Of a stretch of DNA of 64,000 nt, positions 23,609 through 40,983 are shown one piece after another. Made by a program: the position numbers and the translations under genes. Position 1 is the first letter of the stretch. Each line of letters opens with the position of its first letter. A model generated the notes under the pieces. The model saw only the letters and a program-made list of their open reading frames with translations, was not told where the DNA came from and did not search any database. The DNA is from Xenophilus aerolatus (lineage in GTDB: Bacteria; Pseudomonadota; Gammaproteobacteria; Burkholderiales; Burkholderiaceae_C). Where the stretch lies: positions 62,001 through 126,000 of the forward strand of contig QAIB01000003.1 of NCBI GenBank assembly GCA_030418545.1, given 5' to 3'.

Positions 23609-24421
23609 TCAGCCGAAGCGCAGCGTGCGCAGCCCCACGCTGCGGTCGATCCAGATGACCGCCACCAGCGTCAGCACGATGCTCACCGTGGACACGGCCG
23701 CGGCCGTGGGGTCGAAGTCCCAACGCAGGTAGTCGAAGAGCTGCAGCGGCAGCGTGGTCATGCCCACGCCCTTGAGCAGCAGCGACATGTTGAACAGGTC
23801 GAAGGAGATCACGAAGGCGAAGAGCGCGCCGGTGATCAGCCCCGGCTTGATCAGCGGCAGCGTCACGCGCACGAAGGCCCGCGCCGGCGAGGCCCCCAGG
23901 CTGCGCGCCGCCTGCTCCAGCGAGCCGTCCTGGTTGTAGAGCGCCGAGGCCACGTTGGTGAAGACGTAGGGCAGCGTCACCAGCACATGGCCCACCACCA
24001 GCCCGAACACGGTGCGCGTGCCGATGCCCGTCGCGTACAGGAAGAACAGCAGCGCGATGGCGGTGAGGATCTCCGGCAGCATCAGCGGCATCATGAGCAG
24101 CAGGCGCAGCGCCTCGCGTGTGCGCGTGGCATGGCGCACCACATACAGCGCCGCGCCGGTGCCGATCAGCGTGGCGCCCACGGTGGCGGCCGCGGCCAGT
24201 GCCAGCGAGGTGCCCATGGCCCGCATGAAGCCCTCGTTGGCGAACAGCGCGCCGAACCAGCGCAGCGACAGGCCCTGCGGCGGAAAGGTGAGGAACTCGC
24301 CGGCGTTGAGCGACATGAGCACGATCACCACGATCGGCAGCAGCAGGAAGGCATACACCGCGCCGATGAAGACGCGCAGCAGCAGGTCGGCGGTCCGGTC
24401 CGCCACCATCGATCCGTTCAT
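23609..24421 (-). CDS. PotC-like ABC transporter permease
   Basis: A 270-residue permease of the spermidine/putrescine (PotC) class with six predicted helices; the EAA loop is LEQAARSLGASPARAFVRVTLPLIKPG. The ATG at 24421 overlaps the stop of the PotB-like gene (ATGA). It is the last gene of the long leftward operon that starts at 35470. The substrate is unknown; members of this class carry polyamines, amines or other small molecules. Confidence 0.9.
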   Translation of the reverse strand: MNGSMVADRTADLLLRVFIGAVYAFLLLPIVVIVLMSLNAGEFLTFPPQGLSLRWFGALFANEGFMRAMGTSLALAAAATVGATLIGTGAALYVVRHATRTREALRLLLMMPLMLPEILTAIALLFFLYATGIGTRTVFGLVVGHVLVTLPYVFTNVASALYNQDGSLEQAARSLGASPARAFVRVTLPLIKPGLITGALFAFVISFDLFNMSLLLKGVGMTTLPLQLFDYLRWDFDPTAAAVSTVSIVLTLVAVIWIDRSVGLRTLRFG

Positions 24422-25323
24422 GCCAGCCCCCTCGAAAAGCGTCGCGTCAGCCGCGCATAGGCGGCCACGGCGAGCATGCCGCAGGCCGTGAGCACCAGCG
24501 CCTGCGCGGCGCCTGCCGGCCACTGGAAGTTGTCGATCAGGCTCTGCACCACCAGCACCGACACCGTCTTGACCTGCGCACCGCCCAGCATCACCGGCGT
24601 GACGTAGGCGCTGAGCGTGAGCACGAAGACCAGCACCGTGCCGGCCTGGATGCCGGGCCAGGACAGCGGCAGCGACACGCGCAGGAAGGCCTTGAGCCGC
24701 GAGGCGCCCAGCGAGCGTGCGGCGGCCTCCAGGCTCGGGTCGATGCTCTGGATCACGCCCACCAGCGGCAGGATCATGAAGGGCAGGAACACATGGACGA
24801 GTGCGATGGTCACGCCCAGCCGGTTGTTCATCAGCGCGAGGCCGGTATCGATCCAGCCCAGGTCGATCAGCGCGCGGTTGATCACGCCGTTGCCCGACAG
24901 CAGGATCAACCAGCCGAAGCTGCGCACCACCACGCCCACGAGCAGCGGCGAGAGCACCAGCACGTACAGCAGGCCGGCCCAGCGCGAGCGCGTGCGTGCC
25001 AGGTGGAAGGCGACCGGATAGCCCAGCAGCAGGCAGATGGGCGTCACCGTCAGGCCCAGCAGCAGCGTGTCGCCCAGCACGCCGAGCAGGTAGCCGTCGG
25101 TCAGCGCACGGGTGTAGTTGCCCAGCGTCATCCCGGCGCCATAGGGCGCGCCGACGGCCGGCGGCCGCAGGCTCATCAGCACGATGTTCAGGTAGGGCAG
25201 CAGCAGGAACACGCCCAGCAGCACCAGCGCCGGGGCGATCAGCCAGATGGCGCGGCTGGGCGGCGGCGTCGCTGCCGTCGGGAGGGGGGCCGCAGCGGGT
25301 GCGGCCAGCGTGGAGGCGCTCAT
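24418..25323 (-). CDS. PotB-like ABC transporter permease
   Basis: A 301-residue permease of the PotB class. After an alanine/proline-rich start, helix 1 is at about residues 28-52, and the EAA loop is LEAAARSLGASRLKAFLRVSLPLSWPG. It pairs with the next gene. Its start overlaps the stop of the ATPase and its stop overlaps the PotC-like start, giving tight coupling. Confidence 0.9.
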   Translation of the reverse strand: MSASTLAAPAAAPLPTAATPPPSRAIWLIAPALVLLGVFLLLPYLNIVLMSLRPPAVGAPYGAGMTLGNYTRALTDGYLLGVLGDTLLLGLTVTPICLLLGYPVAFHLARTRSRWAGLLYVLVLSPLLVGVVVRSFGWLILLSGNGVINRALIDLGWIDTGLALMNNRLGVTIALVHVFLPFMILPLVGVIQSIDPSLEAAARSLGASRLKAFLRVSLPLSWPGIQAGTVLVFVLTLSAYVTPVMLGGAQVKTVSVLVVQSLIDNFQWPAGAAQALVLTACGMLAVAAYARLTRRFSRGLA

Positions 25324-26447
25324 CCCGGAATGACCCAGGCATGGCCGGGCTCGAAGGCCAGGCCGCAGTGCGCGCCCTCGGGCATGCGCCCGCCCGGTGG
25401 CGTCTGCACCAGCAGCGTCTGGCCGCCAGCGGCCTCGATCACGTGTTCCACCGTGCTGCCCAGGAAGTAGCTGCGCGCCACGCGACCCGCGTACGGGCCG
25501 TCCGCGCGGAAGTGGATGGCCTCGGGCCGCAGCGTCACCTGCACGGCCTGGCCGGGCTGCAGCGCGTCATGGAAGGCGGCCTCGACGGGGCCGAGCGCGG
25601 TGTCGACCGCATGCACCGGCCGCTCACCAGCGCCCGGCACGACTGCGCGCACGCGGCCTTCGATGAGGTTGGAACGGCCGATGAAGCGTGCCACCTCCAC
25701 GCTGCGCGGCCGCAGGTAGATGGCCTCGGGCACGTCGAACTGCTGCAACTGGCCGCCCAGCATCACGGCCACGCGGTCGGACATGACCATCGCCTCGGCC
25801 TGGTCGTGCGTCACGTACAGCGTGGTGATGCCCACGCGGCGCTGCAGGTCGCGGATGAACACGCGCATGTCTTCGCGCAGCACCGCGTCCAGGTTGGCCA
25901 GCGGCTCGTCCAGCAGCAGCAGGCGCGGCTCGATCACCAGCGCGCGCGCCAGGGCCACGCGCTGCTGCTGGCCGCCGGAGAGCTGGCGCGGAAAACGCTC
26001 GGCCAGCGCGCCCAGCTGCACCATGCCCAGCACGGCCTCGACTCGGCGTTCGATCTCGGCGCGCGGCACGCCGCGCATCTCCAGGCCGAAGGCCAGGTTG
26101 CGCCGCACGCTCAGGTGGGGAAAGAGCGCGTAGTTCTGGAACACCATGCCGATGTCGCGCTTCTCGGGCGGCAGGCCGGTGATGTCCTCGCCGTCGATGC
26201 AGATGCGCCCACCCTCGGGATGCTCGAAGCCGGCCACGCAGCGCAGCGTGGTCGTCTTGCCGCAGCCGCTCGGGCCCAGCACCGAGATGAACTCGCCCTC
26301 GCGCGTGGCCAGGTCCAGCGAATGGATGGCCACGTGGCCGGCGTAGCGCTTGTGCAGCCCCTCGATGGACAGCCGCGTGGTGCGCCGGCTGGCGGCGCGG
26401 ACCGCGGGCATCGCCGCGTCGGGCGGCGCGGACAGGACTGCGCTCAC
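25320..26447 (-). CDS. PotA-like ABC transporter ATPase
   Basis: A 375-residue ATP-binding subunit with Walker A GPSGCGKT, Q-loop VFQNYALFPH, signature LSGGQQQR, Walker B LLLLDEPLANLD and switch VTHDQAEA. The C-terminal TOBE domain extends from about residue 265. The GTG at 26447 overlaps the stop of the binding-protein gene (GTGA) and gives MSAVLS; an internal ATG 12 codons later is the alternative. It drives the PotB/PotC-like pair. Confidence 0.9.
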   Translation of the reverse strand: MSAVLSAPPDAAMPAVRAASRRTTRLSIEGLHKRYAGHVAIHSLDLATREGEFISVLGPSGCGKTTTLRCVAGFEHPEGGRICIDGEDITGLPPEKRDIGMVFQNYALFPHLSVRRNLAFGLEMRGVPRAEIERRVEAVLGMVQLGALAERFPRQLSGGQQQRVALARALVIEPRLLLLDEPLANLDAVLREDMRVFIRDLQRRVGITTLYVTHDQAEAMVMSDRVAVMLGGQLQQFDVPEAIYLRPRSVEVARFIGRSNLIEGRVRAVVPGAGERPVHAVDTALGPVEAAFHDALQPGQAVQVTLRPEAIHFRADGPYAGRVARSYFLGSTVEHVIEAAGGQTLLVQTPPGGRMPEGAHCGLAFEPGHAWVIPG

Positions 26448-27490
26448 TTGATCTCCCGGTTCCAGCGGTCGGTGATGGCCGGCAGCTGCGGGTTCACCTT
26501 GGCCCAGTCGAACTGCACGATGGAGGACATGGCCTTGCCGTTGATCGGCACGTCGGCCACCAGGGCCGGGTCCAGCTTCACCTGCGTGTTGGTGGGCGAG
26601 GTGAAGAACTCCTTGGCCATCGACTCCTGCACCTCGGGCCGCAGGATGAAGTTGAGGTACTGGTAGGCGGCCTCCTTGTCGGGCGCGTGCTTGAGGATGT
26701 TGAAGGACTGCTCGAAGGCCACCACGCCTTCGCTGGGCACCACCATCTCGACCGGCACGCCCTTCTTCTTGAGCGCCACGATCTCGGGGAAGTCGATCAC
26801 CGCCACGGTGACGTCGCCGCGCGTGAGCATGGTCGACAGCGTGCCGCTCCAGTCGGCCTGCTGGAAGGGCAGCAGCTTCTTGATCTCGACGAAGGCGCGG
26901 TCGATGGCGTCCTGCGAGCCGCCGTAGATCTTGGCGGTCATCAGAAGGAACAGCATGGCCGCGGTGTTGCCGATCTGGTAGAGGCCGATCTTGCCCTTGA
27001 ACTCGGGGTTGTTCCAGAGATCGGCCCAGGACTTGGGCGGCGTCTTGACCAGGTCCTTGCGGTAGCCGATGCCGATGGTGGAGACGATGCCGCGCACGCC
27101 GTTGTCGCCCGGGTTGCGCAGGTTGGGGTACACGTGGGCCAGGTTGGGCACCTTGGCGGCCGGGATGGGCTCGAAGTAGCCCTCGCTGCGCACCACGCTG
27201 GCGATGTTCTCGTTGACCATCAGCACGCTGTAGGGCGGCTTCTCGATGCCGGCGGCGCGCAGGTTGGCGATGAAGTTCTTGCCCAGGCCCACGTCCAGCG
27301 TGGGCTTGACGCCGCTGATCTTCTCGAAGGCCGGCATCAGGTCGGTGCGCCAGAACTTCTCCCAGCGGCCGCCATAGGTGTTGACCACCAGCGGCGCGGC
27401 CGCGAGCGAGGGGAAGGCGGGCAGGCCGAGGGCGGCGGCGGTGCCCAGGCCGCGGGCCAGCAGGTCGCGGCGGTTGATCGGAAAGGTCAT
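26444..27490 (-). CDS. PotD/extracellular solute-binding protein of the second transporter in the operon
   Basis: A 348-residue periplasmic protein. The start MTFPINRRDLLARGLGTAAAL carries a twin-arginine-type signal, so it is probably exported folded by Tat. Blocks such as NTYGGRWEKFWRTDLMPAFE, YRKDLVKTPPKSWADLWNNPEFKGKIGLY and SEGVVAFEQSFNILKHAPDKEAAYQYLNF are typical of the polyamine/iron-type binding family. The ligand is unknown; no Tyr-Tyr iron motif is seen. It lies 41 bases downstream of an oxygenase gene in the same operon, so the ligand may be related to that enzyme's substrate. Confidence 0.88.
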   Translation of the reverse strand: MTFPINRRDLLARGLGTAAALGLPAFPSLAAAPLVVNTYGGRWEKFWRTDLMPAFEKISGVKPTLDVGLGKNFIANLRAAGIEKPPYSVLMVNENIASVVRSEGYFEPIPAAKVPNLAHVYPNLRNPGDNGVRGIVSTIGIGYRKDLVKTPPKSWADLWNNPEFKGKIGLYQIGNTAAMLFLLMTAKIYGGSQDAIDRAFVEIKKLLPFQQADWSGTLSTMLTRGDVTVAVIDFPEIVALKKKGVPVEMVVPSEGVVAFEQSFNILKHAPDKEAAYQYLNFILRPEVQESMAKEFFTSPTNTQVKLDPALVADVPINGKAMSSIVQFDWAKVNPQLPAITDRWNREIK

Positions 27491-27531: not shown

Positions 27532-28515
27532 TCAGGCCACGGGGGCAGGCTCGGCGGGCTTGCGGTAGTCGTAGTTGCGGTTGAGCCGCTCGAGCAGGTA
27601 GTCGCCGTAGCGCACCGGCGGGTGCTGCGGCGGATGGGCCGCATCGGTGCAGGTGGGCAGGCATTCGATGAGCGTGTCCATCGACGGATCGAGGAAGTAG
27701 GGCAGCGAGTAGCGGTCGCCGCCCGAGCGGTTGATGACGCGGTGCGGCGTGGAGACCAGGCGGCCGTTGGTCCAGCGCGCCAGCATGTCGCCCACGTTGA
27801 GCACGTAGGTGTCGGGGATGGGCGGCGCCTCGATCCAGTCGCCGCCGCGCGGGCGCACCTGCAGGCCGCCGGAGTCGTCCTGGGCCAGCAGCGTGATGAT
27901 TCCGTAGTCGGTGTGCGGGGCGGAGCCGATCTGCTCGTCCTCGGCGGGCGGCTGCGGCGGATAGTGCAGGGCGCGCAGGAAGGTGGTGGGGTGGTCGAAG
28001 TGGTGGTCCAGCGCCGTGGCCGGCAGGCCCAGCGCCAGCGCGATCAGGCGCACGATGTGGCGGCCCAGTGCATCGACCTCCCGCACGTAGGCCAGCATGG
28101 CGGACTTGAAGCCGGGCAGCCAGTCGGGCCACTGGTTGGGGCCCTGCATGGGCAGGCCCGCGAGCAGGCCGGGGTCGTCGGGCGGCAGCTCGTGCATGAG
28201 CATCAGCGATTCGCTCATGTTGGGCCGCGTCACCTTCGCCACCGTGGAGGTGACGATGGTGGAACTGGCCATGCCCATGTAGCCGCGATGGAAGGCGTTG
28301 ATGGCCAGCGACTGCTTCTGCGCCAGGGTCGACGTATGGAAGTCGCGCGACGCGGCGAAGGCGGCCTCGCGGGTGGCGGACGCCACGTTGTGGCCGGCGA
28401 TGTAGGCAAAGCCGATCTGGCTCAGGGCCTCGAACAGCGCGCGTGCGTTCTGCTGCGCCAGGGGCGCGTCGGCGTCCAGGCTGCCCTGCAGGTCGACGAT
28501 GGGGATGTGCTTCAT
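27532..28515 (-). CDS. isopenicillin-N-synthase-like Fe(II)/2-oxoglutarate oxygenase (B)
   Basis: A 327-residue non-haem iron oxygenase. The facial triad is His201 and Asp203 (PHTDYG) and His258 (TPHRV); the 2-oxoglutarate-binding RxS is Arg268-Ser270. The PIVDLQ start and YPPQPP are typical of the family that includes thymine-7-hydroxylase, ethylene-forming enzyme and flavonoid oxygenases. It is paralogous to the enzyme at 34478 (both end in ECLPTC near the C-terminus). The ATG overlaps the stop of the isochorismatase-like gene. The substrate is not known; a nucleobase or its derivative is inferred from the rut context. Confidence 0.9.
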   Translation of the reverse strand: MKHIPIVDLQGSLDADAPLAQQNARALFEALSQIGFAYIAGHNVASATREAAFAASRDFHTSTLAQKQSLAINAFHRGYMGMASSTIVTSTVAKVTRPNMSESLMLMHELPPDDPGLLAGLPMQGPNQWPDWLPGFKSAMLAYVREVDALGRHIVRLIALALGLPATALDHHFDHPTTFLRALHYPPQPPAEDEQIGSAPHTDYGIITLLAQDDSGGLQVRPRGGDWIEAPPIPDTYVLNVGDMLARWTNGRLVSTPHRVINRSGGDRYSLPYFLDPSMDTLIECLPTCTDAAHPPQHPPVRYGDYLLERLNRNYDYRKPAEPAPVA

Positions 28516-29219
28516 GTCTGGGGTTCTTCAGTAAGGTTGGGAGCGCGCTGGCGCCACACGGCCAGCCGGTCGGCCGAGCTCATCACCAGCCCCAGGTGCA
28601 GCGACACCATGGCCAGCGCGGCCTGTTCCAGCGGCTCGTCGGTGCCACGCACCAGGTCCTGCAGCACGATCACGCGGTAGTTGCGGTTGTTGGCGTCGAA
28701 GGCGGTGTTGAGCACGCAGCAGTCGGTGAAGCCGCCGTCGAGCACGACGGTCTCGATGCGCTGGTTGCGCAGCAGGAAGTCCAGGTCGGTGGGATAGAAG
28801 GCCGACAGGCGGCGCTTGTTCTCCACCTTCAGGTCGCCGGGCTCCACGCGCGTGACCCACTCGGTCCAGGGCGAGCCCTCGATCGCGTGCGCATCGGCGT
28901 TGGGGATCGGGCCCACGTGCAGCGGGAAGGTGCGCCGCCACGCGGCCGGGATGCCGCCAAGGTCGTCGGCGCCGCCCTCGCGCAGCACCGACTTGACGTG
29001 CACGATGCGCCCGCCCAGCGCGCGCACCTCGTCGTGGAAGGCATCGATGGGCGCCACCACGTCGCGCGCCCGCGGCGCCGGGCAGGGGCAGTCGGGCGAA
29101 TCGTCCAGGTGGCCGCGGTGCATGTCGATGGAGAGCACTGCGGTGCGGGACAGGTCCAGGTAGTCGGCGAACTGGCTGACGTCCAGTTCGCGCGGCTGGT
29201 TGTAGACATAGGCGCGCAT
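28512..29219 (-). CDS. isochorismatase-like cysteine hydrolase
   Basis: A 235-residue hydrolase with the Asp-Lys-Cys triad of the isochorismatase-like fold: Asp32 in LSIDMHRGHL, Lys135 in ENKRRLSAFYPTD, and Cys168 in GGFTDCCVLNTA (a second Cys at 167). RutB, at 38929, is another member of this fold; the two share only the fold motifs, so the substrate should differ. The residues after the Asp (CPCPAPRAR) are an unusual cysteine-proline insertion. It overlaps genes on both sides (ATGA). Amide or ureido hydrolysis is likely. Confidence 0.88.
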   Translation of the reverse strand: MRAYVYNQPRELDVSQFADYLDLSRTAVLSIDMHRGHLDDSPDCPCPAPRARDVVAPIDAFHDEVRALGGRIVHVKSVLREGGADDLGGIPAAWRRTFPLHVGPIPNADAHAIEGSPWTEWVTRVEPGDLKVENKRRLSAFYPTDLDFLLRNQRIETVVLDGGFTDCCVLNTAFDANNRNYRVIVLQDLVRGTDEPLEQAALAMVSLHLGLVMSSADRLAVWRQRAPNLTEEPQT

Positions 29220-30163
29220 CAGCGTCGCTCCTCTCGCAGATAGGGTTGGCCGAGGGCGCCGGGCTCGTCGTGCACGGCCTGGCCGCCGCGGCGCGCCAGC
29301 GCCACCCACACCATCACGCCCAGCGTGACGACGTAGGGCGTCATCAGCACGAAGTACTGCGGCAGCTGCACGCCCGCGGCCGCCAGCTGCGGGATCAGCG
29401 CTTCGATGCAGCCGAAGAGCAGCGCGCCGGCCAGCGCGCGCCAGGGCGACCAGCGCGCGAAGATCACCAGCGCCACCGCGATCCAGCCGCGCCCGCCGGT
29501 CATGCCCGCGATCCACAGTTTGGTGCCCACCACCGAGATGTACGCACCGGCCAGCCCGACCAGCGCCGAGCCTGCCACCACCGCACCGAAGCGCCACAGC
29601 GGCACCGAGAGGCCGGCCGCATCGGCGGCCTGCGGGTTCTCGCCCACCGCGCGCAGGCGCAGCCCGGGCGTGCTGCGGTTGAGCCAATGCACCGTGGCCC
29701 AGAACAGCAGCGGCACCAGGTACACGATCAGGTTCTGGTGGAAGAGACGGCCCACCAGCGGCAGGTCGGACAGCAGCGGGATCGGCAGTGCGCCGAAGCT
29801 GCTGACCGGCTTGTTGGTCCAGTCCAGCACCGTGCCCAGCAGGCCGGTCAGGCCCTGGCAGAAGAAGACCAGCGCCAGGCCGGCGATCACCTGCTGGACG
29901 CGCAGCACGATCACCATGAAGGCGAAGAGCAGCGACACCGCGGCCGCGGCCAGCATGGCCAGCGGCAGCGCGATGGCCGCCTCGTGGAAGCTCAGCATGG
30001 CGCCGATGCCGGCCAGAGCGCCGACCAGCATCAGCCCCTCGGCGCCCAGCGACAGCACGCCCGCGCGCTCGCTCAGGATCAGGCCCAGCGCGGCCAGCGC
30101 ATAGGGCACCGCGAAGTCGGGCGCGTTGCCCAGCCAGTTGGTGGCGATGGAGAGCACGTCCAC
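29219..30163 (-). CDS. BMP-type (nucleoside) ABC transporter permease, second subunit
   Basis: A 314-residue permease of the branched-chain/NupQ-YufQ class with about eight to nine helices. The motif LSERAGVLSLGAEGLMLVGA near residue 30 and NPQAADAAGLSVPLWRFGAVVAGSALVGLAGAYISV near 190 are typical of simple-sugar and nucleoside importers. The GTG at 30163 has GGGAGG five bases upstream and lies one base after the other permease's stop. It overlaps the isochorismatase-like gene (ATGA). Confidence 0.9.
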   Translation of the reverse strand: MDVLSIATNWLGNAPDFAVPYALAALGLILSERAGVLSLGAEGLMLVGALAGIGAMLSFHEAAIALPLAMLAAAAVSLLFAFMVIVLRVQQVIAGLALVFFCQGLTGLLGTVLDWTNKPVSSFGALPIPLLSDLPLVGRLFHQNLIVYLVPLLFWATVHWLNRSTPGLRLRAVGENPQAADAAGLSVPLWRFGAVVAGSALVGLAGAYISVVGTKLWIAGMTGGRGWIAVALVIFARWSPWRALAGALLFGCIEALIPQLAAAGVQLPQYFVLMTPYVVTLGVMVWVALARRGGQAVHDEPGALGQPYLREERR

Positions 30164-30164
30164 G

Positions 30165-31287
30165 TCAGCCTCCCGGTCCCCGGGCCACGCGCCGCAGCCG
30201 GTGGCGGATGAAGAAGTCCGACGAGGCGACGCAGATGACCAGGATGGCCTGGATCAGCTGCACCATCGCGAAGGGGATCTGGTAGAAGACCTGCAGGTTG
30301 CGGCCGGCCACGAAGAGCATGGCGATCAGCACCGCCACCACGCTGGCCGCGAGCGGGTTGTTGCGTGCCAGGAAGGCGATGAGGATGCCCGAGAAGCCGT
30401 AGCCCACGTAGAAGGCCTGCGTGAGCCGCCCCTCCTGCCCCGTCACCACCACGAAGCCCGCCAGCCCCGAAAGCGCGCCCGACAGCAGCACGGCCACGAG
30501 CACCATGCGGGCCACCGGCACCCCCAGCGCGCGCGCCACGCGCGGGTTGGCGTCCACGAAGCGCAGGTACAGACCGGCGCGGCTCAGGCCCGTGAACCAG
30601 GTGGCCAGCAACGCGGCCAGCACGGCCAGGCCGATGGCCGCGGTGCCGGGGTTGCCGAGCCATTCGGGCAGGCGCTCGAAGGCACGGAACTGGGGCGAAT
30701 AGGGGAACGCGTCCTTCGGGTCCTTCCACGCGCCGTAGACCAGGTGGAGCAGGAAGTTGCCCGCCACGTAGTTGAGCATCAGCGAGGCGATGATCTCGTT
30801 CACGGCCAGCCGCAGCTTGAGCAGGGCCGGCGCCAGGGCCCAGGCCATGCCCATCGCGATCGCCACGGCACCCATCAGCGGCAAGCGCAGCGCGGGCGGG
30901 CCGATCTCGAACATCGACACCGCCGTGGCGCCGATGGCGCCGAAGATCATCTGGCCTTCCAGCCCCAGGTTCCAGAAGCGGGCGCGAAAGGCGATGGCGG
31001 CGCCGATGCCCACCAGGATCATGGGCGCGGCCTGGAAGAGCACGGCCAGCATGCTCTGCCGGTCCACCAGCGTCTGCATGACGAACTCGTTGAGCAGCTC
31101 GTTGGCCGGCACACCCGCCGCCACCAGGATGGCGGCCGAGATCGCGAGGCCCGCCGCCACTGCCAGCGCCAGGATCAGGGCCTGCTTGGGCAGAGCCATC
31201 TGCTGGCGCAGTTCCAGCGTGTAGCGGCGCGAGAGAAGCGGCACAGGCTTCGCACGCGCCGCCGTGCCGGGAGCTTCGAGTGCGGTG

Positions 31288-31295
<8 letters not shown>
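30165..31295 (-). CDS. BMP-type (nucleoside) ABC transporter permease, first subunit
   Basis: A 376-residue permease of the NupP/YufP class. An N-terminal helix at about 37-57 is followed by GIGAAIAFRARFWNLGLEGQMIFGAIGA, the signature of this subunit, and YGFSGILIAFLARNNPLAASVVAVLIAML near the C-terminus. It overlaps the ATPase gene by eight bases. It pairs with the other permease as a heterodimer. Confidence 0.9.
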
Positions 31296-32789
<1,494 letters not shown>

Positions 32790-32793
<4 letters not shown>

Positions 32794-33887
32794 TTCTGCG
32801 TCACGACGCCCTTGACGAACCAGTCCATCTTCCAGAGGTCGGCGTCGGGGAGCACGGCGCCCGCCGCCACGCGCTCCTTGCCGTCGCGGTCCTTCAGCGG
32901 GCCGGCATAGATCTGCTTGCCCTTCAGGATCGCTTCGCGTTCGGCCTGGATGAGCTTGACCTTGTCGGCCGGCACGGCGGGACCGAAGCCGGCGATGTCG
33001 GTGCCGCCGCCGCTCATCGGGATGAAGGCGCCATACGGCTCGGGTTTCCAGTTGCCGGCGATGACCTTCTTGAGTTCGGGAATCAGGAAGCGGTCCCACA
33101 CCCACACCGACGAGCACAGCGTGGCCTTGGGCGCGAACTGCCGCAGGTCGCGGTGGTGGCCGGTGCCGTACACGCCACGCTCCTGCGCCACGATCTGCGG
33201 CGTGGGCGAATCCACGTGCTGCCCGATGACGTCGGCGCCCTGGTCGATCAGCGCAGTGGCGGCGGCGCGCTCCTTGACCGGGTCGTTCCAGGTGCCGGTG
33301 TAGATCACGTTGACCGTGGCGTTGGGGTTCATCTTCTGGGCCCCGAGCGCGAAGGCGTTGATGGTCCAGTTCACCACGCCGAAGGGGTTGGCGGCCACGA
33401 AGCCCAGCTTGCCCGTCTTGCTGGCGGCGCCGGCCGCCATGCCGCACAGGTACTGGCTCTCGTAGGTGCGGCCGTAGAAGGATTCGAGGTTCGGTCCGTT
33501 GGTGGTGCCCGAGCCGTTGAGGAAGGCCACCTTGGGGTACTTGGCTGCCAGGTCCTTGAAGGCGTCGGACTGGCCGAAGGCGGTCCCGATCACGATGTTG
33601 GCGCCGCGCGAGATGAAGCGTTCGGCCGCCGGCTTGATGACCGAGGCGTCCTCGCCCACGTTCTCCACGAACTGGATCTTCTGGCCGAGCGCGGCCTCGA
33701 TCTTGGCGCGGGCCTCGTCGAAGGCCTGCGTCCACCCACCGTCGTTCTTGGGGCCGTAGTACAGCATCGCGATCACGGGTTTGCCGCTGAGGCTGAAGCC
33801 GGCCTGGGCGTAGGCGGCGCCGGCCGACAGCAGCACGGCGGCACCGGCCAGGACCACGCTCAGGCGTGGGAAGCGCTTGGACAACAT
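32790..33887 (-). CDS. BMP family (nucleoside-type) ABC transporter binding protein
   Basis: A 365-residue periplasmic protein of the BMP/PnrA/NupN family. The ATG at 33887 (MLSKRFPRL) begins a clear signal peptide cleaved near residue 28 (AYA|Q) and has GGAG upstream. Family blocks are YGPKNDGGWTQAFDEARAKIE, GANIVIGTAFGQSDAF, CGMAAGAASKTGKLGFVA and the TGTWNDPVKERAAATALIDQGADVI segment. Known members bind purine or pyrimidine nucleosides or similar aromatic ring compounds. Together with RutR-linked regulation this suggests a nucleobase, nucleoside or breakdown product as ligand. Confidence 0.92.
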
Positions 33888-33981
33888 GGAAACCTCCAGG
33901 TGGAAGGAGAGAAGAGGGAGCTGGAATAGGTGAAAAAGCACGAACAGTGCCGCCCCCGGCGCCAGCCGGGCAGCGGGCGCG

Positions 33982-34368
33982 TCACATCATGAAATTGATG
34001 CGGAAGACGTTGCCCTCCGGGTCGAGCAGCACCGCCTGGTACCAGTTGTAGTAGGTGACGTACGGCGGTTTGACGAGCGTGGCGCCGGCTTCCAGCGCCA
34101 CGGGCACCATGCGGTCCACGTCCTCGCGGCTGTCGAGGTCGATGTTCAGCAGGAACTTCACGCCCTTCGTGTCCGAGAACTCGGCCAGGTGCAGCAGCTC
34201 GTAGGCGTCCAGGGCGTTGAAGCCCAGGCTGCTCCTGCCCGTGTCCAGCCCGCGGAAGATGGGCGAGCGGATGGCCTCGATCTCCGGGAAGCCGAACACG
34301 CGCTGGTAGAAGCCGCTGAGCGCGACCACGTCCTTGGCGAAGACGTTGACGTAAGACAGGTGGGCCAT
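33982..34368 (-). CDS. VOC (glyoxalase/dioxygenase superfamily) protein
   Basis: A 128-residue single-module-pair VOC fold protein: LSYVNVFAKDVVALSGFYQRVFGFPE at the N-terminus and the closing AVLLDPEGNVFRINF strand are characteristic. A glutamate metal ligand at the usual C-terminal position is replaced by Arg in VFRI, so metal use is uncertain. The ATG at 34368 has a GGA ribosome-site remnant. It lies in the operon between oxygenase A (109 bases upstream) and the binding protein (94 bases downstream). A lyase, isomerase or binding role cannot be decided. Confidence 0.82.
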   Translation of the reverse strand: MAHLSYVNVFAKDVVALSGFYQRVFGFPEIEAIRSPIFRGLDTGRSSLGFNALDAYELLHLAEFSDTKGVKFLLNIDLDSREDVDRMVPVALEAGATLVKPPYVTYYNWYQAVLLDPEGNVFRINFMM

Positions 34369-34398
34369 GGAATCCTCTGTGATCAATGCGGCCGAGCG

Positions 34399-34474
34399 CC
34401 GGGCCGCCCCAAGCCGGCCGCGCCTCCCCCTTGGGGGGTGGCGTTACACGCCGCGGGCGTGAAAAGCCGGGGGG
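34399..34474. repeat. GC-rich intergenic palindrome in the operon
   Basis: The gap between oxygenase A and the VOC gene contains CCTCCCCCTTGGGGGGTGG and, further on, CACGCCGCGGGCGTG, two palindromes typical of short intergenic elements in Comamonadaceae. They would form stable hairpins in the mRNA. Confidence 0.45.
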
Positions 34475-34477
34475 CCG

Positions 34478-35470
34478 TCATTTCGTCCCGCCGAAGGTGG
34501 TCTGCTTGACGAACTTCGAGGTCAGGTGGTCGCCCGAGGAAATCGGCGCGTACTTGGCCTTCTCGCCCGGCGCCAGGCAGGTGGGCAGGCACTCGACCAT
34601 GGCGTCGTAATTCGGCTGGTGGAAGAACACCAGCGACTGCCGGCGATTGGTCTGTGCCACCTCGAAGGGCGGGTTGACCACGCGGTGCATGGTGGACACC
34701 CACTGGTCGTTGGTCCACTGCATCATCAGGTCGGCGATGTTGACCACCAGGCCGCCCTCGACCATCGGCACGTCCACCCACTCGCCGGCCTTGTTCTGCA
34801 CCTGCAGGCCCTTGTCGTCGGGCAGCACGATCGTGAGGCTGCCGTAGTCGCTGTGCGCGCCGGCGCGCAGTTGGCCGGGCAGCGGCGCCTCGCGCTGCGG
34901 CGGGTAGGACAGCACGCGGAACATGCTGATGTGCCTGTCGATCTTGTCGTCGAAGTAGCGCTCGGGCAGCTCGAGCGCGAGGGCGAAGATGCGCATGAGC
35001 GAGCGCGACAGGTCGCTCATGGCCTCGAAGTACTGCTCGTAGGCTTCGCGGAAGCCCGCGATGGGCGGCCAGCTGTTGGGCTCGAAGTGGGGCCCCGCGG
35101 CGGGCCCGCGGTGGTACTCGTCGTCGGGCACGTTCGAGGGACCGATCGAGAAGGACTCCTTCAGGTCGCCCGGCGTGGCCTCTTCGAGGCTGTACGAGAG
35201 CCCTTCTTCACCCACGGCGCTGTAGCCGCGCACCGCGTCGTCGCGCGGGCGGTCCACCTTGCGCTTCTCGGCCAGCGGCATGTCGAAGAACTGGCGCGAC
35301 AGTGCCGACACGCGTGCGATGAGCGCCGGATCGATGCCATGGTGCGTGATCACCAGGAAGCCGATGCTGCGGCAGGCCTCGTCGACCTGGCGGGCCAGCG
35401 CGGCTTTCTCGGCGGCCGTGCCCGAGAAGTAGGGCGCGAGGTCGATGATGGGAACGGTCATGAGGGTCAT
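34478..35470 (-). CDS. isopenicillin-N-synthase-like Fe(II)/2-oxoglutarate oxygenase (A), first gene of the RutR-linked operon
   Basis: A 330-residue non-haem iron oxygenase. The iron triad is His206 and Asp208 (AHSDYG) and His262 (MHRV); the 2-oxoglutarate arginine is in RQS (277-279). The DIOX-N domain starts PIIDLAPYF. It resembles oxygenase B and the family containing fungal thymine-7-hydroxylase. Two starts are possible, 35470 (MTLMTVPII) and 35461; the first leaves a 5' leader of about 32 bases from the sigma-54 promoter. As first gene behind a perfect -24/-12 promoter with a RutR-like palindrome, it is probably induced during nitrogen limitation. Confidence 0.9.
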   Translation of the reverse strand: MTLMTVPIIDLAPYFSGTAAEKAALARQVDEACRSIGFLVITHHGIDPALIARVSALSRQFFDMPLAEKRKVDRPRDDAVRGYSAVGEEGLSYSLEEATPGDLKESFSIGPSNVPDDEYHRGPAAGPHFEPNSWPPIAGFREAYEQYFEAMSDLSRSLMRIFALALELPERYFDDKIDRHISMFRVLSYPPQREAPLPGQLRAGAHSDYGSLTIVLPDDKGLQVQNKAGEWVDVPMVEGGLVVNIADLMMQWTNDQWVSTMHRVVNPPFEVAQTNRRQSLVFFHQPNYDAMVECLPTCLAPGEKAKYAPISSGDHLTSKFVKQTTFGGTK

Positions 35471-35529: not shown

Positions 35530-35547
35530 TTGGACCAAATGGACAAA
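35530..35547. promoter_or_regulatory. RutR-like operator palindrome between oxygenase A and rutR
   Basis: TTGGACCAAATGGACAAA agrees with the E. coli RutR consensus TTGACCAnnTGGTCAA at 12 of 14 fixed positions and shares GACCAAATGG with the site upstream of rutA. It abuts the -24 element of the sigma-54 promoter, a position suited to repression, and could also serve the divergent rutR. Confidence 0.65.
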
Positions 35548-35750: not shown

Positions 35751-36482
35751 ATGGCCAGACCAGCTGCGGCGAAGAAGAAGGCGCCGGCCGAGGTGCGCAA
35801 GCGCGGTGCCGAGCATGCGGGGAGGAAGCCGACGCCGCCCGCGCGTCCGCGCGTCGCGCGCAGGCCGCGCCAGGCCGAGGACAAGCGCAGCGTGATCCTG
35901 TCCGCGGCGCTGGGCCTGTTCTCGCGCTACGGCCTGCATGGCACCAGCGTGGACCAGGTGGCCGCGCGCGCCGACGTCTCGAAGAGCAACCTGCTCTACT
36001 ACTTCGCCAACAAGGAAGAGCTGTACGTGAGCGTGCTGCGCGAGCTGCTGCACGTCTGGCTGGAGCCGCTGCGCGGATTCAGCGCCGAGCAGGACCCGCG
36101 CGAGGCCATTGCCGGCTACATCCGCCGCAAGCTGGTGATCTCGCGCGACCGGCCCGACGCCTCGCGCCTCTTTTGCCTGGAGATGATCCAGGGCGCACCC
36201 CTGCTGCGCGACGAACTCGATCGCGAACTGCGCACGCTGGTCGAGCGCAAGTCCGAGGTCATTGCCGAATGGGTGCGCTCGGGCCGGCTGCGGCCGGTGG
36301 CGCCGCACCACCTCGTGTTCGGCCTGTGGGCCCTCACCCAGCACTACGCCGACTTCGCCGTGCAGGTCCAGGCCATTTCCGGCCGCACGCTGCAGGATGC
36401 CGCCTTCTTCGAGGAGACGGTCGACAACGTCCAGCGGCTGGTGCTCGACGGCATCTGCGCGCCGGCCGCTGTCCCTGCCTGA
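35751..36482 (+). CDS. rutR: TetR-family regulator RutR
   Basis: A 243-residue TetR regulator. The helix-turn-helix covers about residues 46-90 (ILSAALGLFSRYGLHGTSVDQVAARADVSKSNLLYYFANKEELY), closely resembling RutR, whose ligand in E. coli is uracil or thymine. The C-terminal domain FCLEMIQGAPLL and GLWALTQHYADFAVQV is RutR-like. A basic, alanine/proline-rich extension of about 40 residues precedes the DNA-binding domain. It is convergent with rutF and divergent from oxygenase A, with a RutR-like palindrome between. It is expected to repress both operons until pyrimidine is present. Confidence 0.9.
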   Translation: MARPAAAKKKAPAEVRKRGAEHAGRKPTPPARPRVARRPRQAEDKRSVILSAALGLFSRYGLHGTSVDQVAARADVSKSNLLYYFANKEELYVSVLRELLHVWLEPLRGFSAEQDPREAIAGYIRRKLVISRDRPDASRLFCLEMIQGAPLLRDELDRELRTLVERKSEVIAEWVRSGRLRPVAPHHLVFGLWALTQHYADFAVQVQAISGRTLQDAAFFEETVDNVQRLVLDGICAPAAVPA

Positions 36483-36495
36483 GCGCGCCGCGCTG

Positions 36496-37041
36496 CTACT
36501 GCGGAAGAAGGTCGTGGTAGCGCCGGTCGAAGTAGACGAGGCCGTGCGCCGCGCTGCCCACGCGCACCACTTCCACTTCGCAGAACAGCACGTCGTGGGT
36601 GCCCACCGCGGTGCGATTGACCACGCGGCATTCGAAGGTGGCGGCCGCTTCGGCGAGCACCGGCACGCCGCTGCGGCTCGCGTGCCACTGGGCGGCGGCA
36701 AAGCGTTCGTCCATCGGCGTCTTGCCGCCGAACAGGTTGGACAGCTGCTGCTGGCCGGCGCCCAGCACGTTCACGCACAGCATGCCGTTGGCCTGGAAGA
36801 TGGGATAGACCGATGCGCTGCGATTCAGGCAGATGAGGAGGGTGGGCGGGTCGTCCGTCACGCTGCACACGGCCGAAGCCGTGAAGCCCGCGCGGCCTGC
36901 CGGCCCGTCGGTCGTGATGATGTTGACGGCCGCGCCCAGGCGGGCCATGGCATTGCGGTAGTCACCGCGCTCGAGCGGCGCGGCGGCCGGGCGAACGGCC
37001 TGGGGTGCGGAGCAGGCGGGGGCGGCGGACATCGTCGTCAT
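36496..37041 (-). CDS. rutF: flavin reductase RutF
   Basis: A 181-residue NAD(P)H:flavin oxidoreductase of the HpaC/RutF type. [46 protein letters not shown] is the FMN-binding domain start. It supplies reduced FMN to RutA. Last gene of the leftward rut operon, 48 bases after rutE. The N-terminal 25 residues are a nonconserved extension with an alternative ATG. Confidence 0.93.
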
Positions 37042-37089: not shown

Positions 37090-37680
37090 TCAGGCCAGGC
37101 GGCAGGCTTCGTCGAAGGCCAGGCGCGGCAGGCGGCCCTTGAGCTTCGATGCGTCGCCGTGGCCCAGGTTGATCAGGAAGTTGGTGCGCCAGTCGGTGCC
37201 GGCGAAGAAGGCGGCATCGACCTGCGCCTTGTCGAAGCCCGCCATGGGACCGGCGTCCAGGCCCAGTGCGCGCGCAGCCAGCAGCAGGTAGCCGGCCTGC
37301 AGCGTGGCGTTGAGAAAGGCGGTGTGGTGCGCCACCTCGGCGCTGCCGGTGAACCAGGGGCGCGCATCCACGTGCGGAAAGAGCTTGGGCAGCTGGTCGT
37401 AGAAGCGCGCATCCCAGGCGCAGATCACCGTGACGGGTGCAGCCATGGTCTTGTCGAGGTTGCCGGCCGACAGGGCGGGCCGCAGTCGTTCCTTGCCCTC
37501 CGGCGTGCGCACGAACACGAAGCGCCCCGGCGAGCAGTTGGCCGAGGTGGGGCCCAGGCGGGCGAGGTCGTAGACCTGCCGCAGCAGCGAGTCGGGAACC
37601 GGCGCGTCGGTCCAGCCGTTGTGGGTGCGCGCCTCGGTGAAGAGGGCGGCGAGGGCGCGTTCGTCCAAGGAGTGGGACAT
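37090..37680 (-). CDS. rutE: malonic semialdehyde reductase RutE
   Basis: A 196-residue nitroreductase-fold enzyme, the same length as E. coli RutE, which reduces toxic malonic semialdehyde to 3-hydroxypropionate at the end of uracil breakdown. [26 protein letters not shown] and [16 protein letters not shown] are conserved. It lies 26 bases after rutD. Confidence 0.94.
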
Positions 37681-37706: not shown

Positions 37707-38495
37707 TCAGTGCCGACCTGCCAGGAAGGCCAGCAGGGTGGTGTTGAAGCGCGCCGGGTCGGTCACGCTGTGCGCATGGCCGCCGTGCGCGCTGCGGTCG
37801 AGCACGGCCTGCGGCAGGCGCTCGGCCAGGCGCTGCGACATCGTCCAGGGCACCAGCACGTCGTCCTGCGCGCAGGCGACCAGCGCGGGCGCCGCGATGT
37901 CGGACAGGCGCGCATCGACGTCGAAGGCGCGCAGCGCACCGATGCGCGCACGCATGTTGCCGTCGCCCGGAAAGTGCTCGATGGCGTGTTCCACCTCTGC
38001 CTGCACCTGCTCGGCGTGGGCCGCGGCCCAGTCGGCCGGGTACAGGAAGATGGGCTGCGCCTCCACGTAGGCCCGCGCGCCGCCGGCCGCCAGCAGCGCC
38101 AGGCGGGCCTCGAAGCAGCGGGCCGAATGCGGGTTGGGCCGGGACCAGGCGTTGACGAGCACGAGGCTGGCCACGCTTTGCGGTGCATCCAGCGCCAGTT
38201 GCAGGCCCACCAGGCCACCCAGCGCATGGCCCACCAGATGGCAGCGTGCAGTGCCGGTGGCGTCCATCACCTCGGCCACGTCACCGGCCATGTCGGCGAT
38301 GGCGTAGTCGGGCGGCAGGTCGGCCGGGCTGCGGCCGGTGCCGCGCTGGTCGTAGGCCACCACGCGCCAGCCGGCCTCGACCAGCGCCGGGATCTGCGGT
38401 CGCCAGAAGCCGGCCGAGCCGCCCAGGCCCGAGGACAGCAGCACGCTGGGCGCGCCGGGACGGCCTTCGCCGTGAACCTCGTGGTACAGCGCCAT
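37707..38495 (-). CDS. rutD: aminoacrylate/carbamate hydrolase RutD
   Basis: A 262-residue alpha/beta hydrolase. The nucleophile elbow reads GHALG (89-93), with Ala91 where serine usually sits; this substitution is also, to my knowledge, the RutD norm and not a mutation here. [10 protein letters not shown] and the C-terminal histidine in [11 protein letters not shown] are present. It speeds removal of aminoacrylate or carbamate in uracil catabolism. The ATG at 38495 is eight bases after rutC. Confidence 0.92.
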
Positions 38496-38503: not shown

Positions 38504-38896
38504 TCAGGCCTTCTTGCCCACGTGGGCGATGGAGGCGATCTCCACCAGCGCGTCGGGCTTCACCAGGCTGCACTGGATGCAGTAGCGCGCCGGCTTGGTG
38601 CCGGGGAAGTACTCGGCATACACCGCGTTGACCTTGGCGTAGTTGGCCCAGTCGGTGATGAAGATCATGTTGAAGGTGACGTCGTCCATCGTGCCGCCGG
38701 CGGCCTCGATGACGCCCTTGATGGTCTCCAGCACATGGCGGGTCTGCGCGGTGGCATCGCCGACGTGCACCACGTTGTTGTCCTTGTCGAAGGGCAGGGT
38801 GCCCGAGACATAGACGACCCCGTCGGCCAGCGTGCCGGGCACGAAGGGCGCGATGGGGGTGCTGGTGCCGGGAGGGATGATGGCTTCCTTGGGCAT
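38504..38896 (-). CDS. rutC: aminoacrylate peracid reductase/deaminase RutC (Rid family)
   Basis: A 130-residue YjgF/Rid protein: [28 protein letters not shown] at the N-terminus and [21 protein letters not shown] at the C-terminus. Length matches E. coli RutC. It acts on the 3-aminoacrylate formed after RutB. It sits 32 bases downstream of rutB. Confidence 0.95.
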
Positions 38897-38928: not shown

Positions 38929-39720
38929 TCAGACCGTGGCCGCTTCGGCGGCGGCGGGCGTGACAGCGGTGGCGGGTGCGAGGGCCTGGCAGAACGCGTC
39001 CACCGTCGACACCCAGCCGAAGAAGGTCTCCACGTTGTAGACGGTGCCCTGCTGGATGGCCGGGCCGCCCAGCTCGTGGGTGGCGTCTTCCAGCATCAGC
39101 GAGAAATACTCCAGGTGGAAGGCGTCGCGCAGCGTGGACTCCACGCACACGTTGGTGGCGATGCCGGTGAACACCAGGCTGCGGATGCCGCGGGCGCGCA
39201 GGCTGCTGTCCAGCGTGCTGTTGAAGAAGCCGCTGTAGCGGGTCTTGGGAATCACGAGGTCGCCGGCTTGCGGCTTCATCGCGTCGATGAGTTCGTAGTC
39301 CCAGCCGCCCTTGGCCAGGAAGCGGCCCTGCAACTCGGGCCGCGCGCGCATCGTCTTGAGCGCATTGGACTTGTGCCAGTTGGGCGAGCCGGGGCCGCCC
39401 GCCTCGACGTACTTCGCGTCCCAGCCGTTCTGCAGGAAGACGACAAGCATGCCCGCGGCGCGCGCCGCCTCGATGGCGCGCACGATGCCGGCAATGGTGC
39501 CCTGCGCGCCCGAGATGTCGAAGCCGGCCGAGTCCACGTAGCCGCCCAGCGAGGCATAGGCGTTCTGCATGTCGACCACGATCAGCGCGGTCTGCGTGGG
39601 CACGAGAGCCAGCGGCTCGGGGCGCGAAGGGATCACGGTCGGTGCCGGCGCGCCGGGCGCCTGGGGCGGGCCGACCGGCGTGGTCGAGCGGAGCGTCGCG
39701 TTGGTCTTGGATGAGGTCAT
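38929..39720 (-). CDS. rutB: ureidoacrylate amidohydrolase RutB
   Basis: A 263-residue isochorismatase-fold hydrolase that cleaves (peroxy)ureidoacrylate to aminoacrylate, ammonia and CO2. The triad is Asp50 (VVDMQNAY), Lys159 (PKTRYSGF) and Cys192 ([16 protein letters not shown]). A proline-rich N-terminal extension of about 40 residues precedes it. It begins 16 bases after rutA. Confidence 0.94.
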
Positions 39721-39736: not shown

Positions 39737-40858
39737 TCAAGCGGCCAGCGCTTCGGGCGCGCCCACCTGCGTGGGCACGGGCGTGTCCACGTCGACGCGG
39801 CTCTTCATCAGCGGCTGGATGTGCTCGCCGAAGTCCTCGACGCCCTGCACGAAGTCGTCGAAGGTCAGCAGCACGCCCTCGGTGCCGGGCACCTCGGCCA
39901 TCTCGTCGAGCATGCGGGCCACGTTGGCCCAGGAGCCCACCAGCGTGCCCATGTTGATGTTCACGGCCGACGGCGAGGTGGCGTCGGTCATCTGGCGCAC
40001 GTTGGTGTCGCCGCCCGACCTGGTGTCGGCCGCGCCCTGCTGGGCCATCCAGGCGATGGCCTCGGTGTCGGCGCCGGCCTTGTAGTGCTCCCACTTGGCG
40101 AAGGCGGCCTCGTCGGTCTCGGCCGCGATCACCATGATCAGCACATAGGTGGTCACATGGCGGCCGGTCCTGGCCGTGGCCTCGATCAGCTTCTGCGCCG
40201 CGGGCGCGAAGGCCTTGGGCGTGTTCACGCCCTTGCCGAAGCAGAAGTTGTAGTCGGCGTACTGGGCCGAAAAGGCCATGCCGGCATCGCTCTGACCGGC
40301 GCAGATGACCTTCATGGGCGCCTGCGGCTGCGGGCTCAGGCGGCAGTCGTCCATCTTGAAGTACTCGCCCTTGAAGTCCGACCGGCCCTGGCCCCACAGG
40401 TCGCGCAGCACCTGGATGTATTCCGAGAGGTACTGGTAGCGGGTGGCGAAGAACTCGTCGCCGGGCCACATGCCCATCTGGGAGTATTCGGGGCGCTGCC
40501 AGCCGGTCACCAGGTTCAGGCCGAAGCGGCCGTTCGAGATGCTGTCGATGGTGGACGCCATGCGCGCCACGATGGCCGGCGGCATCACCAGCGAGGCGGC
40601 GGTCGCGAAGAGCTTGATCTTGGTCGTCACGGCCGCGAGGCCCGACATCAGTGTGAAGGACTCCAGGTTGTGGTCCCAGAACTCCGTCTTCCCGCCGAAG
40701 CCGCGCAGCTTGATCATGGACAGCGCGAAGTCCAGGCCGTAGTGCTCGGCCTTGAGCGTGATGGTCTTGTTCAGCTCGAAGCTGGGCTTGTATTGCGGCG
40801 CGTTCTGCGACAGCAGCCAGCCGTTGTTACCGATGGGGATGAAGACGCCGACTTTCAT
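39737..40858 (-). CDS. rutA: pyrimidine monooxygenase RutA
   Basis: A 373-residue luciferase-like FMN monooxygenase that opens the uracil (or thymine) ring between N3 and C4. [17 protein letters not shown] at the start, [15 protein letters not shown] and [18 protein letters not shown] are distinctive for RutA. The ATG at 40858 is set by this start; an ORF extension upstream would include the promoter leader. First gene of rutABCDEF. Confidence 0.95.
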
Positions 40859-40964: not shown

Positions 40965-40983
40965 TTTGACCAAATGGTCCAAA
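40965..40983. promoter_or_regulatory. RutR operator upstream of rutA
   Basis: TTGACCAAATGGTCCA matches TTGACCAnnTGGTCAA at 13 of 14 fixed positions. It lies about 55 bases upstream of the -24 element, and could block activator contact with the promoter rather than polymerase binding. Confidence 0.75.

What the first reader, a model, noticed from the sequence alone, without database searches (positions are those of the whole stretch)
27532..35470. Two paralogous isopenicillin-N-synthase-like oxygenases at opposite ends of one transporter operon
Both keep the HxD...H iron triad and the RxS 2-oxoglutarate site and share a C-terminal ECLPTC block. Two successive oxidations (such as methyl to hydroxymethyl to aldehyde to carboxylate, as thymine-7-hydroxylase does) could be divided between them. 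The PotD-like binding protein starts 41 bases after oxygenase B.
Basis: inference. Interest (0 to 1): 0.62.

Follow-up and report, generated by a model that had tools for sequence, protein, structure and literature searches.

The report
RutR-controlled oxygenase operon for pyrimidines
Next to a complete set of genes for eating uracil, this soil bacterium carries a conserved, probably co-regulated transport operon whose first gene is an iron oxygenase related to fungal thymine hydroxylase, so it probably imports and oxidises modified pyrimidines; a second, only distantly related oxygenase in the same stretch belongs to a separate nucleoside module that most relatives lack.

Summary
The two oxygenases are real (A 34478-35470, B 27532-28515, minus strand; 32% identical). 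In 200 same-family genomes all 11 with OxyA have RutA, against 1 of 189 without it. The BMP binding protein keeps AtzT's aromatic sandwich but has lost two purine-contacting residues that purine-cluster homologues keep. OxyA is therefore most likely a RutR-controlled 2OG oxygenase acting on an imported, non-uracil pyrimidine that feeds the Rut pathway. T7H is its best structural match, but T7H's base-recognition residues (N87, E122) are replaced by invariant V and S, and T7H falls outside both clades; thymine itself is only one candidate. The proposed division of two oxidations between A and B is not supported: B is not a sister of A, and 22 of 23 OxyA genomes checked that lack an adjacent B have none. 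OxyB belongs to a PotDABC/nucleoside-hydrolase-type module. The wider oxygenase family repeatedly sits in purine and pyrimidine gene clusters.

The parts
34478..35470 (-). oxyA: IPNS-like Fe(II)/2OG oxygenase, first gene of the operon
   Evidence: Pfam DIOX_N + 2OG-FeII_Oxy; AF model pLDDT 86.9, best match T7H Z 39.4, rmsd 1.7
35531..35546 (.). RutR-operator-like site (TTGTCCATTTGGTCCA read on the minus strand) between oxyA and rutR, 60 bp upstream of oxyA
   Evidence: 2 mismatches to TTGACCANNTGGTCAA; a site with up to 3 mismatches is upstream of oxyA in 66 of 80 loci
33982..34368 (-). small VOC-fold protein, partner of oxyA
   Evidence: Pfam Glyoxalase; strongly similar to PDB 2rbb; present in 77/77 loci with enough flank
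32790..33887 (-). bmpS: BMP/PnrA-type substrate-binding protein
   Evidence: Pfam Bmp; nearest PDB AtzT, guanine-binding; AtzT Ser97/Glu165 replaced, aromatic sandwich kept
31288..32793 (-). bmpA: ABC ATPase of the BMP transporter
   Evidence: B6/ribose-type ATPases nearest, below cut-off
30165..31295 (-). bmpP1: permease of the BMP transporter
   Evidence: nearest NCBIfam model NF047929, below cut-off
29219..30163 (-). bmpP2: permease of the BMP transporter
   Evidence: nearest NCBIfam model NF047928, below cut-off
28512..29204 (-). isochorismatase-fold cysteine hydrolase, distant from biuret hydrolase and RutB
   Evidence: Pfam Isochorismatase; BiuH and RutB models far below cut-off; present in 54/71 loci
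27532..28515 (-). oxyB: second IPNS-like Fe(II)/2OG oxygenase, start overlaps the stop of the hydrolase
   Evidence: AF model pLDDT 77.6, T7H Z 35.2 but nearly tied with others
26444..27490 (-). PotD-like substrate-binding protein
   Evidence: SBP_bac_6/8; PotD model 63.6 bits against cut-off 582
25320..26411 (-). PotA-like ABC ATPase
24418..25323 (-). PotB-like permease
   Evidence: below cut-off
23609..24421 (-). PotC-like permease
   Evidence: reading frame and translation
35751..36482 (+). rutR: TetR-family pyrimidine regulator, divergent from oxyA
   Evidence: TetR_C_3; NF011584 RutR 284 bits over cut-off 230; TIGR03613 301 bits, below its cut-off 368
36496..37041 (-). rutF
   Evidence: TIGR03615 above cut-off
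37090..37680 (-). rutE (malonic semialdehyde reductase)
   Evidence: NF003768 above cut-off
37707..38495 (-). rutD
   Evidence: TIGR03611 above cut-off
38504..38896 (-). rutC
   Evidence: TIGR03610 above cut-off
38929..39720 (-). rutB
   Evidence: TIGR03614 above cut-off
39737..40858 (-). rutA (pyrimidine oxygenase)
   Evidence: TIGR03612 697 bits, cut-off 498
40966..40981 (.). RutR-operator-like site TTGACCAAATGGTCCA, 107 bp upstream of rutA
   Evidence: 1 mismatch; conserved upstream of rutA

Best explanation
OxyA, the VOC protein and the BMP transporter form a RutR-controlled accessory module of the Rut pyrimidine pathway. The BMP transporter brings in a planar, non-purine heterocycle other than plain uracil. 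OxyA oxidises it with 2-oxoglutarate, O2 and Fe(II), so that the ring, or a uracil released from it, can enter RutA-F. The single most likely chemistry is oxidation or removal of a methyl group: the C5 methyl of thymine or of a thymine-like base, or an N-methyl. OxyB-PotDABC is a second module added behind the first in this lineage; it most likely imports and oxidises a (modified) nucleoside. Shown: gene identities, operator-like sites, conserved order, co-occurrence, predicted fold and active-site residues. Inferred: RutR control in vivo, that the substrate is a pyrimidine, and the reaction. The role of the VOC protein is open; it may hold or hand over the substrate or product.
For: rut operon and rutR adjacent. 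RutR-like operators upstream of rutA and oxyA, six matches in the window against 0.92 expected; within 300 bp upstream of oxyA 66/80 loci have a site with up to 3 mismatches, against 136/3000 random windows. OxyA-RutA co-occurrence in 200 same-family genomes: 11 both, 0 OxyA alone, 1 RutA alone, Fisher 3e-17. Three OxyA genomes lacking RutA carry the reductive enzyme PreA instead. VOC next in 77/77 and bmpS in 76/76 loci. BmpS nearest to guanine-binding AtzT, aromatic sandwich kept, Ser97 and Glu165 replaced, whereas purine-cluster homologues keep both. The genome also has a RutG-like uracil permease elsewhere, so the BMP system need not serve uracil. OxyA model best matches T7H, Z 39.4 against 36.5 for the next protein. 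OxyB with PotDABC and a divergent nucleoside hydrolase in Variovorax ginsengisoli, and a 53% relative beside a nucleoside hydrolase.
Against: No substrate has been shown for any close relative. T7H base contacts N87/E122 are not conserved. Residues that are conserved (R190, Y217, F292) are shared by nearly the whole family and say nothing about the substrate. Some relatives lie in purine clusters, so the chemistry could be other than methyl oxidation. An internal promoter for oxyB-potDABC cannot be excluded. The co-occurrence test does not correct for shared ancestry of the 11 genomes.
Confidence: 0.62

Rival explanations
1. OxyA is a bacterial thymine-7-hydroxylase in the strict sense: thymine to 5-hydroxymethyl-, 5-formyl- and 5-carboxyuracil, which then enters the Rut pathway. 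(A special case of the best explanation.)
For: T7H is the top structural match; 33% identity with the RGYSA motif shared; RutR context. In principle 5-carboxyuracil could be processed by Rut and lose CO2 later as a beta-keto acid (inference).
Against: N87, E122 and N294 of T7H are V, S and Q in the OxyA clade; T7H falls outside the OxyA clade; no isoorotate-decarboxylase-like gene in the operon.
Confidence: 0.28
2. OxyA hydroxylates the sugar (C1') of pyrimidine nucleosides, releasing uracil or thymine and a lactone, as reported for fungal pyrimidine deoxynucleoside 1'-hydroxylase (from memory).
For: BMP-type transporters include nucleoside importers (established knowledge); related oxygenases sit beside nucleoside hydrolase and PsuG/PsuK genes.
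Against: BmpS is closest to a base-binding protein, AtzT; no sugar-lactone or pentose genes in the operon.
Confidence: 0.15
3. A and B share one pathway and carry out two successive oxidations of the same substrate.
For: Both lie in one closely spaced gene run here; both models match T7H best.
Against: OxyB absent from 55 of 71 OxyA loci with enough flank and from 22 of 23 whole genomes lacking an adjacent copy; separate clades; different pocket residues V/S/Q against H/M/D.
Confidence: 0.08
4. The oxygenases are unrelated to pyrimidines and merely neighbours (for example amino acid or secondary-metabolite oxidation).
For: The IPNS-like family is functionally broad.
Against: Operator sites, 11/11 co-occurrence with RutA, conserved linkage across Burkholderiales and gamma-proteobacteria, nucleobase-type binding protein.
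Confidence: 0.1

Closest known systems
Fungal thymine-7-hydroxylase (Neurospora crassa T7H, PDB 5c3p-5c3s, PMC4787775)
   Same: Best structural match of both models; same iron and 2OG residues; R190, Y217 and F292 equivalents kept; nucleobase context
   Different: N87 and E122 base contacts replaced by V/S in OxyA and H/M in OxyB; outside both clades in the tree; bacterial, in a RutR-linked transporter operon with a VOC partner
rut pyrimidine utilisation system and RutR regulon (PMC5343134 for RutR regulons in Proteobacteria)
   Same: Complete rutABCDEF and rutR next door; RutR-like operators upstream of rutA and oxyA; strict co-occurrence in the family
   Different: The oxygenase, VOC protein and BMP transporter are not part of the E. 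coli rut operon; whether RegPrecise already lists them could not be checked here
AtzT / BMP family binding proteins (PDB 6pi5, PMC6834077)
   Same: BmpS: same family, aromatic sandwich kept (Trp/Trp for Tyr45/Trp194)
   Different: Ser97 and Glu165 (guanine contacts) lost, Asn218/Asn220 are His/Asp
8-oxoguanine deaminase / BMP transporter / oxygenase cluster (L165)
   Same: An IPNS-like oxygenase of the same wider family beside a BMP transporter
   Different: Purine deaminase genes instead of rut; purine-type binding-protein residues; pocket residues H/D/E; different clade
Rhizobial pseudouridine cluster (R. johnstonii pRL12, L106)
   Same: Oxygenase in the same larger clade as OxyA; PotDABC-type transporter as with OxyB
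   Different: Linked to PsuK, PsuG and nucleoside hydrolase; no VOC protein and no rut genes in the stretch read

Membership tests
Thymine-7-hydroxylase (EC 1.14.11.6) | HxD...H iron triad and 2OG-binding R/S, Arg190, Tyr194 | tested here: met
   All equivalents present in A and B; shared by nearly the whole family, so not diagnostic
Thymine-7-hydroxylase (EC 1.14.11.6) | Base-recognition residues Asn87 and Glu122 | tested here: not met
   V/S in the OxyA orthologues, H/M in OxyB; the N87A and E122A mutants in the paper are not severely impaired on T but dramatically reduced on 5hmU/5fU
Thymine-7-hydroxylase (EC 1.14.11.6) | Groups with T7H in a tree | tested here: inconclusive
   T7H lies outside the branch (99/95) that holds OxyA and OxyB, but only one T7H sequence, on a long branch with a weak root, was available
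Thymine-7-hydroxylase (EC 1.14.11.6) | Oxidation of thymine to 5hmU, 5fU and 5caU | not testable with these tools
   needs purified enzyme
RutR regulon | RutR operator upstream of the operon | tested here: met
   site at 35531-35546 with 2 mismatches, conserved upstream of oxyA in other genera
RutR regulon | RutR-dependent, uracil-responsive expression | not testable with these tools
   needs expression or binding data
Rut pathway (neighbouring operon) | rutABCDEF all present | tested here: met
   RutA, B, C, D, F and the RutE-type reductase above NCBIfam cut-offs
BMP-type nucleobase/nucleoside transporter | Bmp-family binding protein with ATPase and two permeases | tested here: met
   PF02608; ATPase and permeases
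AtzT-like purine-binding protein | Purine-recognition residues Ser97 and Glu165 | tested here: not met
   A and V in the window, A and V/Q/S/L in relatives
Polyamine transporter PotABCD | PotD equivalog score | tested here: not met
   63.6 bits against cut-off 582
Biuret hydrolase / RutB (for the cysteine hydrolase) | NCBIfam equivalog cut-offs | tested here: not met
   72.9 against 370 and 39.4 against 378 bits

The most novel reading that the evidence does not exclude
Bacteria possess an oxidative front end to the Rut pathway: a RutR-controlled 2OG oxygenase (OxyA) with a constant VOC partner and its own base transporter, which removes or oxidises the methyl group of thymine or other modified pyrimidines so that they can be degraded as uracil; it is one branch of a large, so far substrate-less family of IPNS-like oxygenases in which each branch serves a particular nucleobase or nucleoside.
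Probability: 0.35. Interest if true: 0.72.

Novelty: new variant of a known kind. Interest (0 to 1): 0.52.

Why it matters
Thymine-type methyl oxidation outside DNA is known biochemically from fungi (T7H); I found no paper on a bacterial counterpart in a pyrimidine pathway. The conserved operon, its operators and its strict co-occurrence with RutA turn an unannotated pair of oxygenases into a testable hypothesis: which modified pyrimidine do these soil and plant-associated bacteria use? The varying pocket positions (equivalents of T7H 87/122/294) and binding-protein residues give a simple code that could help assign substrates across the family, whose members also sit in 8-oxoguanine, xanthine, urate and pseudouridine gene clusters.

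Tried and rejected
Paper searches for a bacterial thymine-7-hydroxylase, for PA0147-type oxygenases, for pseudouridine clusters in rhizobia and for IPNS-like oxygenases in urate clusters found nothing relevant. Rfam found no RNA element. Terminator and promoter scans did not exceed shuffles and were not used. Canonical VOC metal ligands were looked for by eye in the alignment and not recognised; this was not followed further. The shared ECLPTC block was rejected as a special A-B link. R190/Y217/F292 conservation was rejected as evidence for a thymine substrate because nearly all paralogues have it. The gene-context enrichment (15/28 loci against 0/20 random loci) is weakened because the markers were chosen after seeing some of the loci, and several loci are related or overlapping.
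Full report
Observation. Oxygenase A is 34478..35470 and oxygenase B 27532..28515, both on the minus strand. Both carry DIOX_N and 2OG-FeII_Oxy domains, no NCBIfam family claims either, and they are 32% identical. Iron and 2OG residues are intact. The PotD-like gene starts 41 bases after B. From oxyA to the last Pot gene there are twelve same-strand genes: oxyA, VOC, bmpS, bmpA, bmpP1, bmpP2, cysteine hydrolase, oxyB, potD, potA, potB, potC. Spacings range from 4-8 base overlaps to about 110 bases, so one transcript is plausible but not shown.

Upstream of oxyA, across a divergent rutR, lies the complete rutABCDEF operon: RutA, B, C, D, F and the RutE-type malonic semialdehyde reductase all exceed NCBIfam cut-offs. 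RutR exceeds one of its two models (NF011584) and scores 301 bits against a cut-off of 368 in the other. The E. coli RutR operator TTGACCANNTGGTCAA (consensus from memory) matches 107 bp upstream of rutA (1 mismatch) and 60 bp upstream of oxyA (2 mismatches); six matches with up to three mismatches in the window compare with 0.92 expected.

Conservation. A scan of one genome per species gave 318 relatives of OxyA, of which the best 80 loci (69-100% identity) were kept. They span Comamonadaceae, Burkholderiaceae, Pseudomonadaceae, Marinobacter and Alkalilimnicola. In these, VOC follows in 77/77, bmpS in 76/76 and the rest of the BMP transporter in 69-72 of 71-73 loci with enough flank; the cysteine hydrolase is present in 54/71, RutR in 63/73 and RutA in 61/73. 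OxyB is near in only 16/71. A RutR-like site with up to 3 mismatches lies within 300 bp upstream of oxyA in 66/80 loci, against 136/3000 random windows; such a site is rare upstream of bmpS (1 of 77) and absent upstream of oxyB and potD. In 200 genomes of the same family OxyA (E <= 1e-120) is in 11 and RutA in 12, with 11 shared (Fisher 3e-17; not corrected for phylogeny). Of 16 OxyA-bearing genomes or records picked mostly because rut was not seen beside oxyA, 11 have a RutA match. Three without RutA (L053, L055, L060) carry the reductive-pathway enzyme PreA instead. The OxyA module therefore goes with either uracil-degrading route, as expected if it supplies a pyrimidine.

The transporter. 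BmpS is closest among solved structures to AtzT, which co-purified with guanine and binds pyrimidines weakly (PMC6834077). At the AtzT contact positions BmpS keeps the aromatic sandwich (Trp, Trp) but has Ala for Ser97 and Val for Glu165, with His/Asp for Asn218/Asn220. All RutR-operon homologues checked share Ala at 97 and lack Glu165, while BmpS homologues in the purine-type clusters keep Ser and Glu. This points to a planar ring that is not guanine. The genome has a RutG-like uracil permease elsewhere, so the BMP system probably serves another compound.

Structure and active site. The OxyA model (pLDDT 86.9) matches N. crassa T7H best, Z 39.4, 1.7 A over 298 residues, ahead of the next protein at 36.5 (Foldseek agrees). 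The OxyB model (77.6) also lists T7H first, Z 35.2, but nearly tied with others. From the T7H paper (PMC4787775), Phe292 and Tyr217 sandwich the base, Arg190 contacts 2OG and substrate, and Asn87 and Glu122 recognise the ring. Phe292, Tyr217 and Arg190 equivalents are present in nearly all family members regardless of context and so do not identify thymine. Positions 87/122/294 are N/E/N in T7H, invariant V/S/Q in OxyA orthologues from Variovorax to Tistrella, H/M/D in OxyB and H/D/E in the clade of the 8-oxoguanine-deaminase cluster. OxyA thus has a conserved pocket of its own.

Phylogeny. In a maximum-likelihood tree of 48 sequences OxyA falls in a starred clade with, among others, the rhizobial oxygenases; OxyB is in a different clade, and T7H lies outside the branch (99/95) holding both. 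The root and the T7H placement are weak (one sequence, long branch), so T7H membership by tree is inconclusive, but A and B are clearly not a recent duplicate pair.

OxyB. Of 23 OxyA genomes without an adjacent OxyB, 22 lack it altogether. In the exception, Variovorax ginsengisoli, the 79% orthologue lies at another locus with PotDABC and a GntR-type regulator (by eye), and a nucleoside hydrolase closest to UriH/RihA models (below cut-off) is divergent. A 53% relative in another genome is beside a nucleoside hydrolase, and in L057 an OxyB relative (64%) sits inside the BMP operon between two bmpS copies. On R. johnstonii pRL12 a PotDABC-type transporter and an oxygenase lie with PsuK-like, PsuG and nucleoside hydrolase genes. 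OxyB-PotDABC therefore looks like a nucleoside module that has joined the RutR-type operon in this lineage.

The wider family. Relatives lie in a urate/allantoin/8-oxoguanine cluster (L158/L172), a xanthine dehydrogenase-uricase-PbuX cluster (L163), an XdhAB-PbuX cluster with two oxygenases and a VOC protein in tandem (L169), and an 8-oxoguanine deaminase-BMP cluster (L165); most key genes there exceed curated cut-offs. A marker count gave 15/28 loci against 0/20 random loci, with the caveat that markers were chosen after seeing some of the loci.

Mechanism and verdict. Best supported: RutR-controlled import and 2OG-dependent oxidation of a non-uracil pyrimidine feeding Rut (0.62 for this general statement). 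Methyl oxidation or removal is the likeliest chemistry, strict thymine-7-hydroxylase activity about 0.28. The function of the VOC protein, which is present in every locus with enough sequence to show it, is not explained. No experimental evidence for the substrate exists in anything I could read.

Noticed in passing
L169:6109-9947 (G502): Two IPNS-like oxygenases in tandem, one from the OxyA-containing clade, plus the same VOC-type protein, between xanthine dehydrogenase XdhAB and a PbuX xanthine permease.
   Followed up: partly
L158 and L172 (G965): One urate/allantoin/8-oxoguanine catabolic region with three IPNS-like oxygenases, a Rieske-type protein, NMT1-type transporters and a RutB-like hydrolase; one of the oxygenases (L155) is the closest to T7H in the tree set, 39% identity.
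   Followed up: partly
L109:2077-4540 (own genome, contig C5): A further oxygenase-VOC pair next to an NMT1/THI5-type binding protein.
   Followed up: partly
L106 (R. johnstonii pRL12) and L105: Carbohydrate kinase and pseudouridine-5'-phosphate glycosidase with an oxygenase, enoyl-CoA hydratase and acyl-CoA ligase genes; L106 also has a nucleoside hydrolase and a full PotDABC-type transporter.
   Followed up: partly
window 33982-34368: The VOC protein is in places more conserved than OxyA itself and lacks recognisable metal ligands; a close relative of unknown function has a solved structure (2rbb).
   Followed up: partly
L170 (G653): OxyA and VOC are separated, on opposite sides of the rut operon, yet both remain in the cluster.
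   Followed up: no
L010, L012, L013, L014, L046, L049, L057: No rutE homologue detected between rutD and rutF although the rest of rut is present.
   Followed up: no
L087 (record titled Bradyrhizobium sp. S69): OxyA-VOC next to an inverted BMP operon with the cysteine hydrolase; neither RutA nor PreA found in that genome.
   Followed up: no
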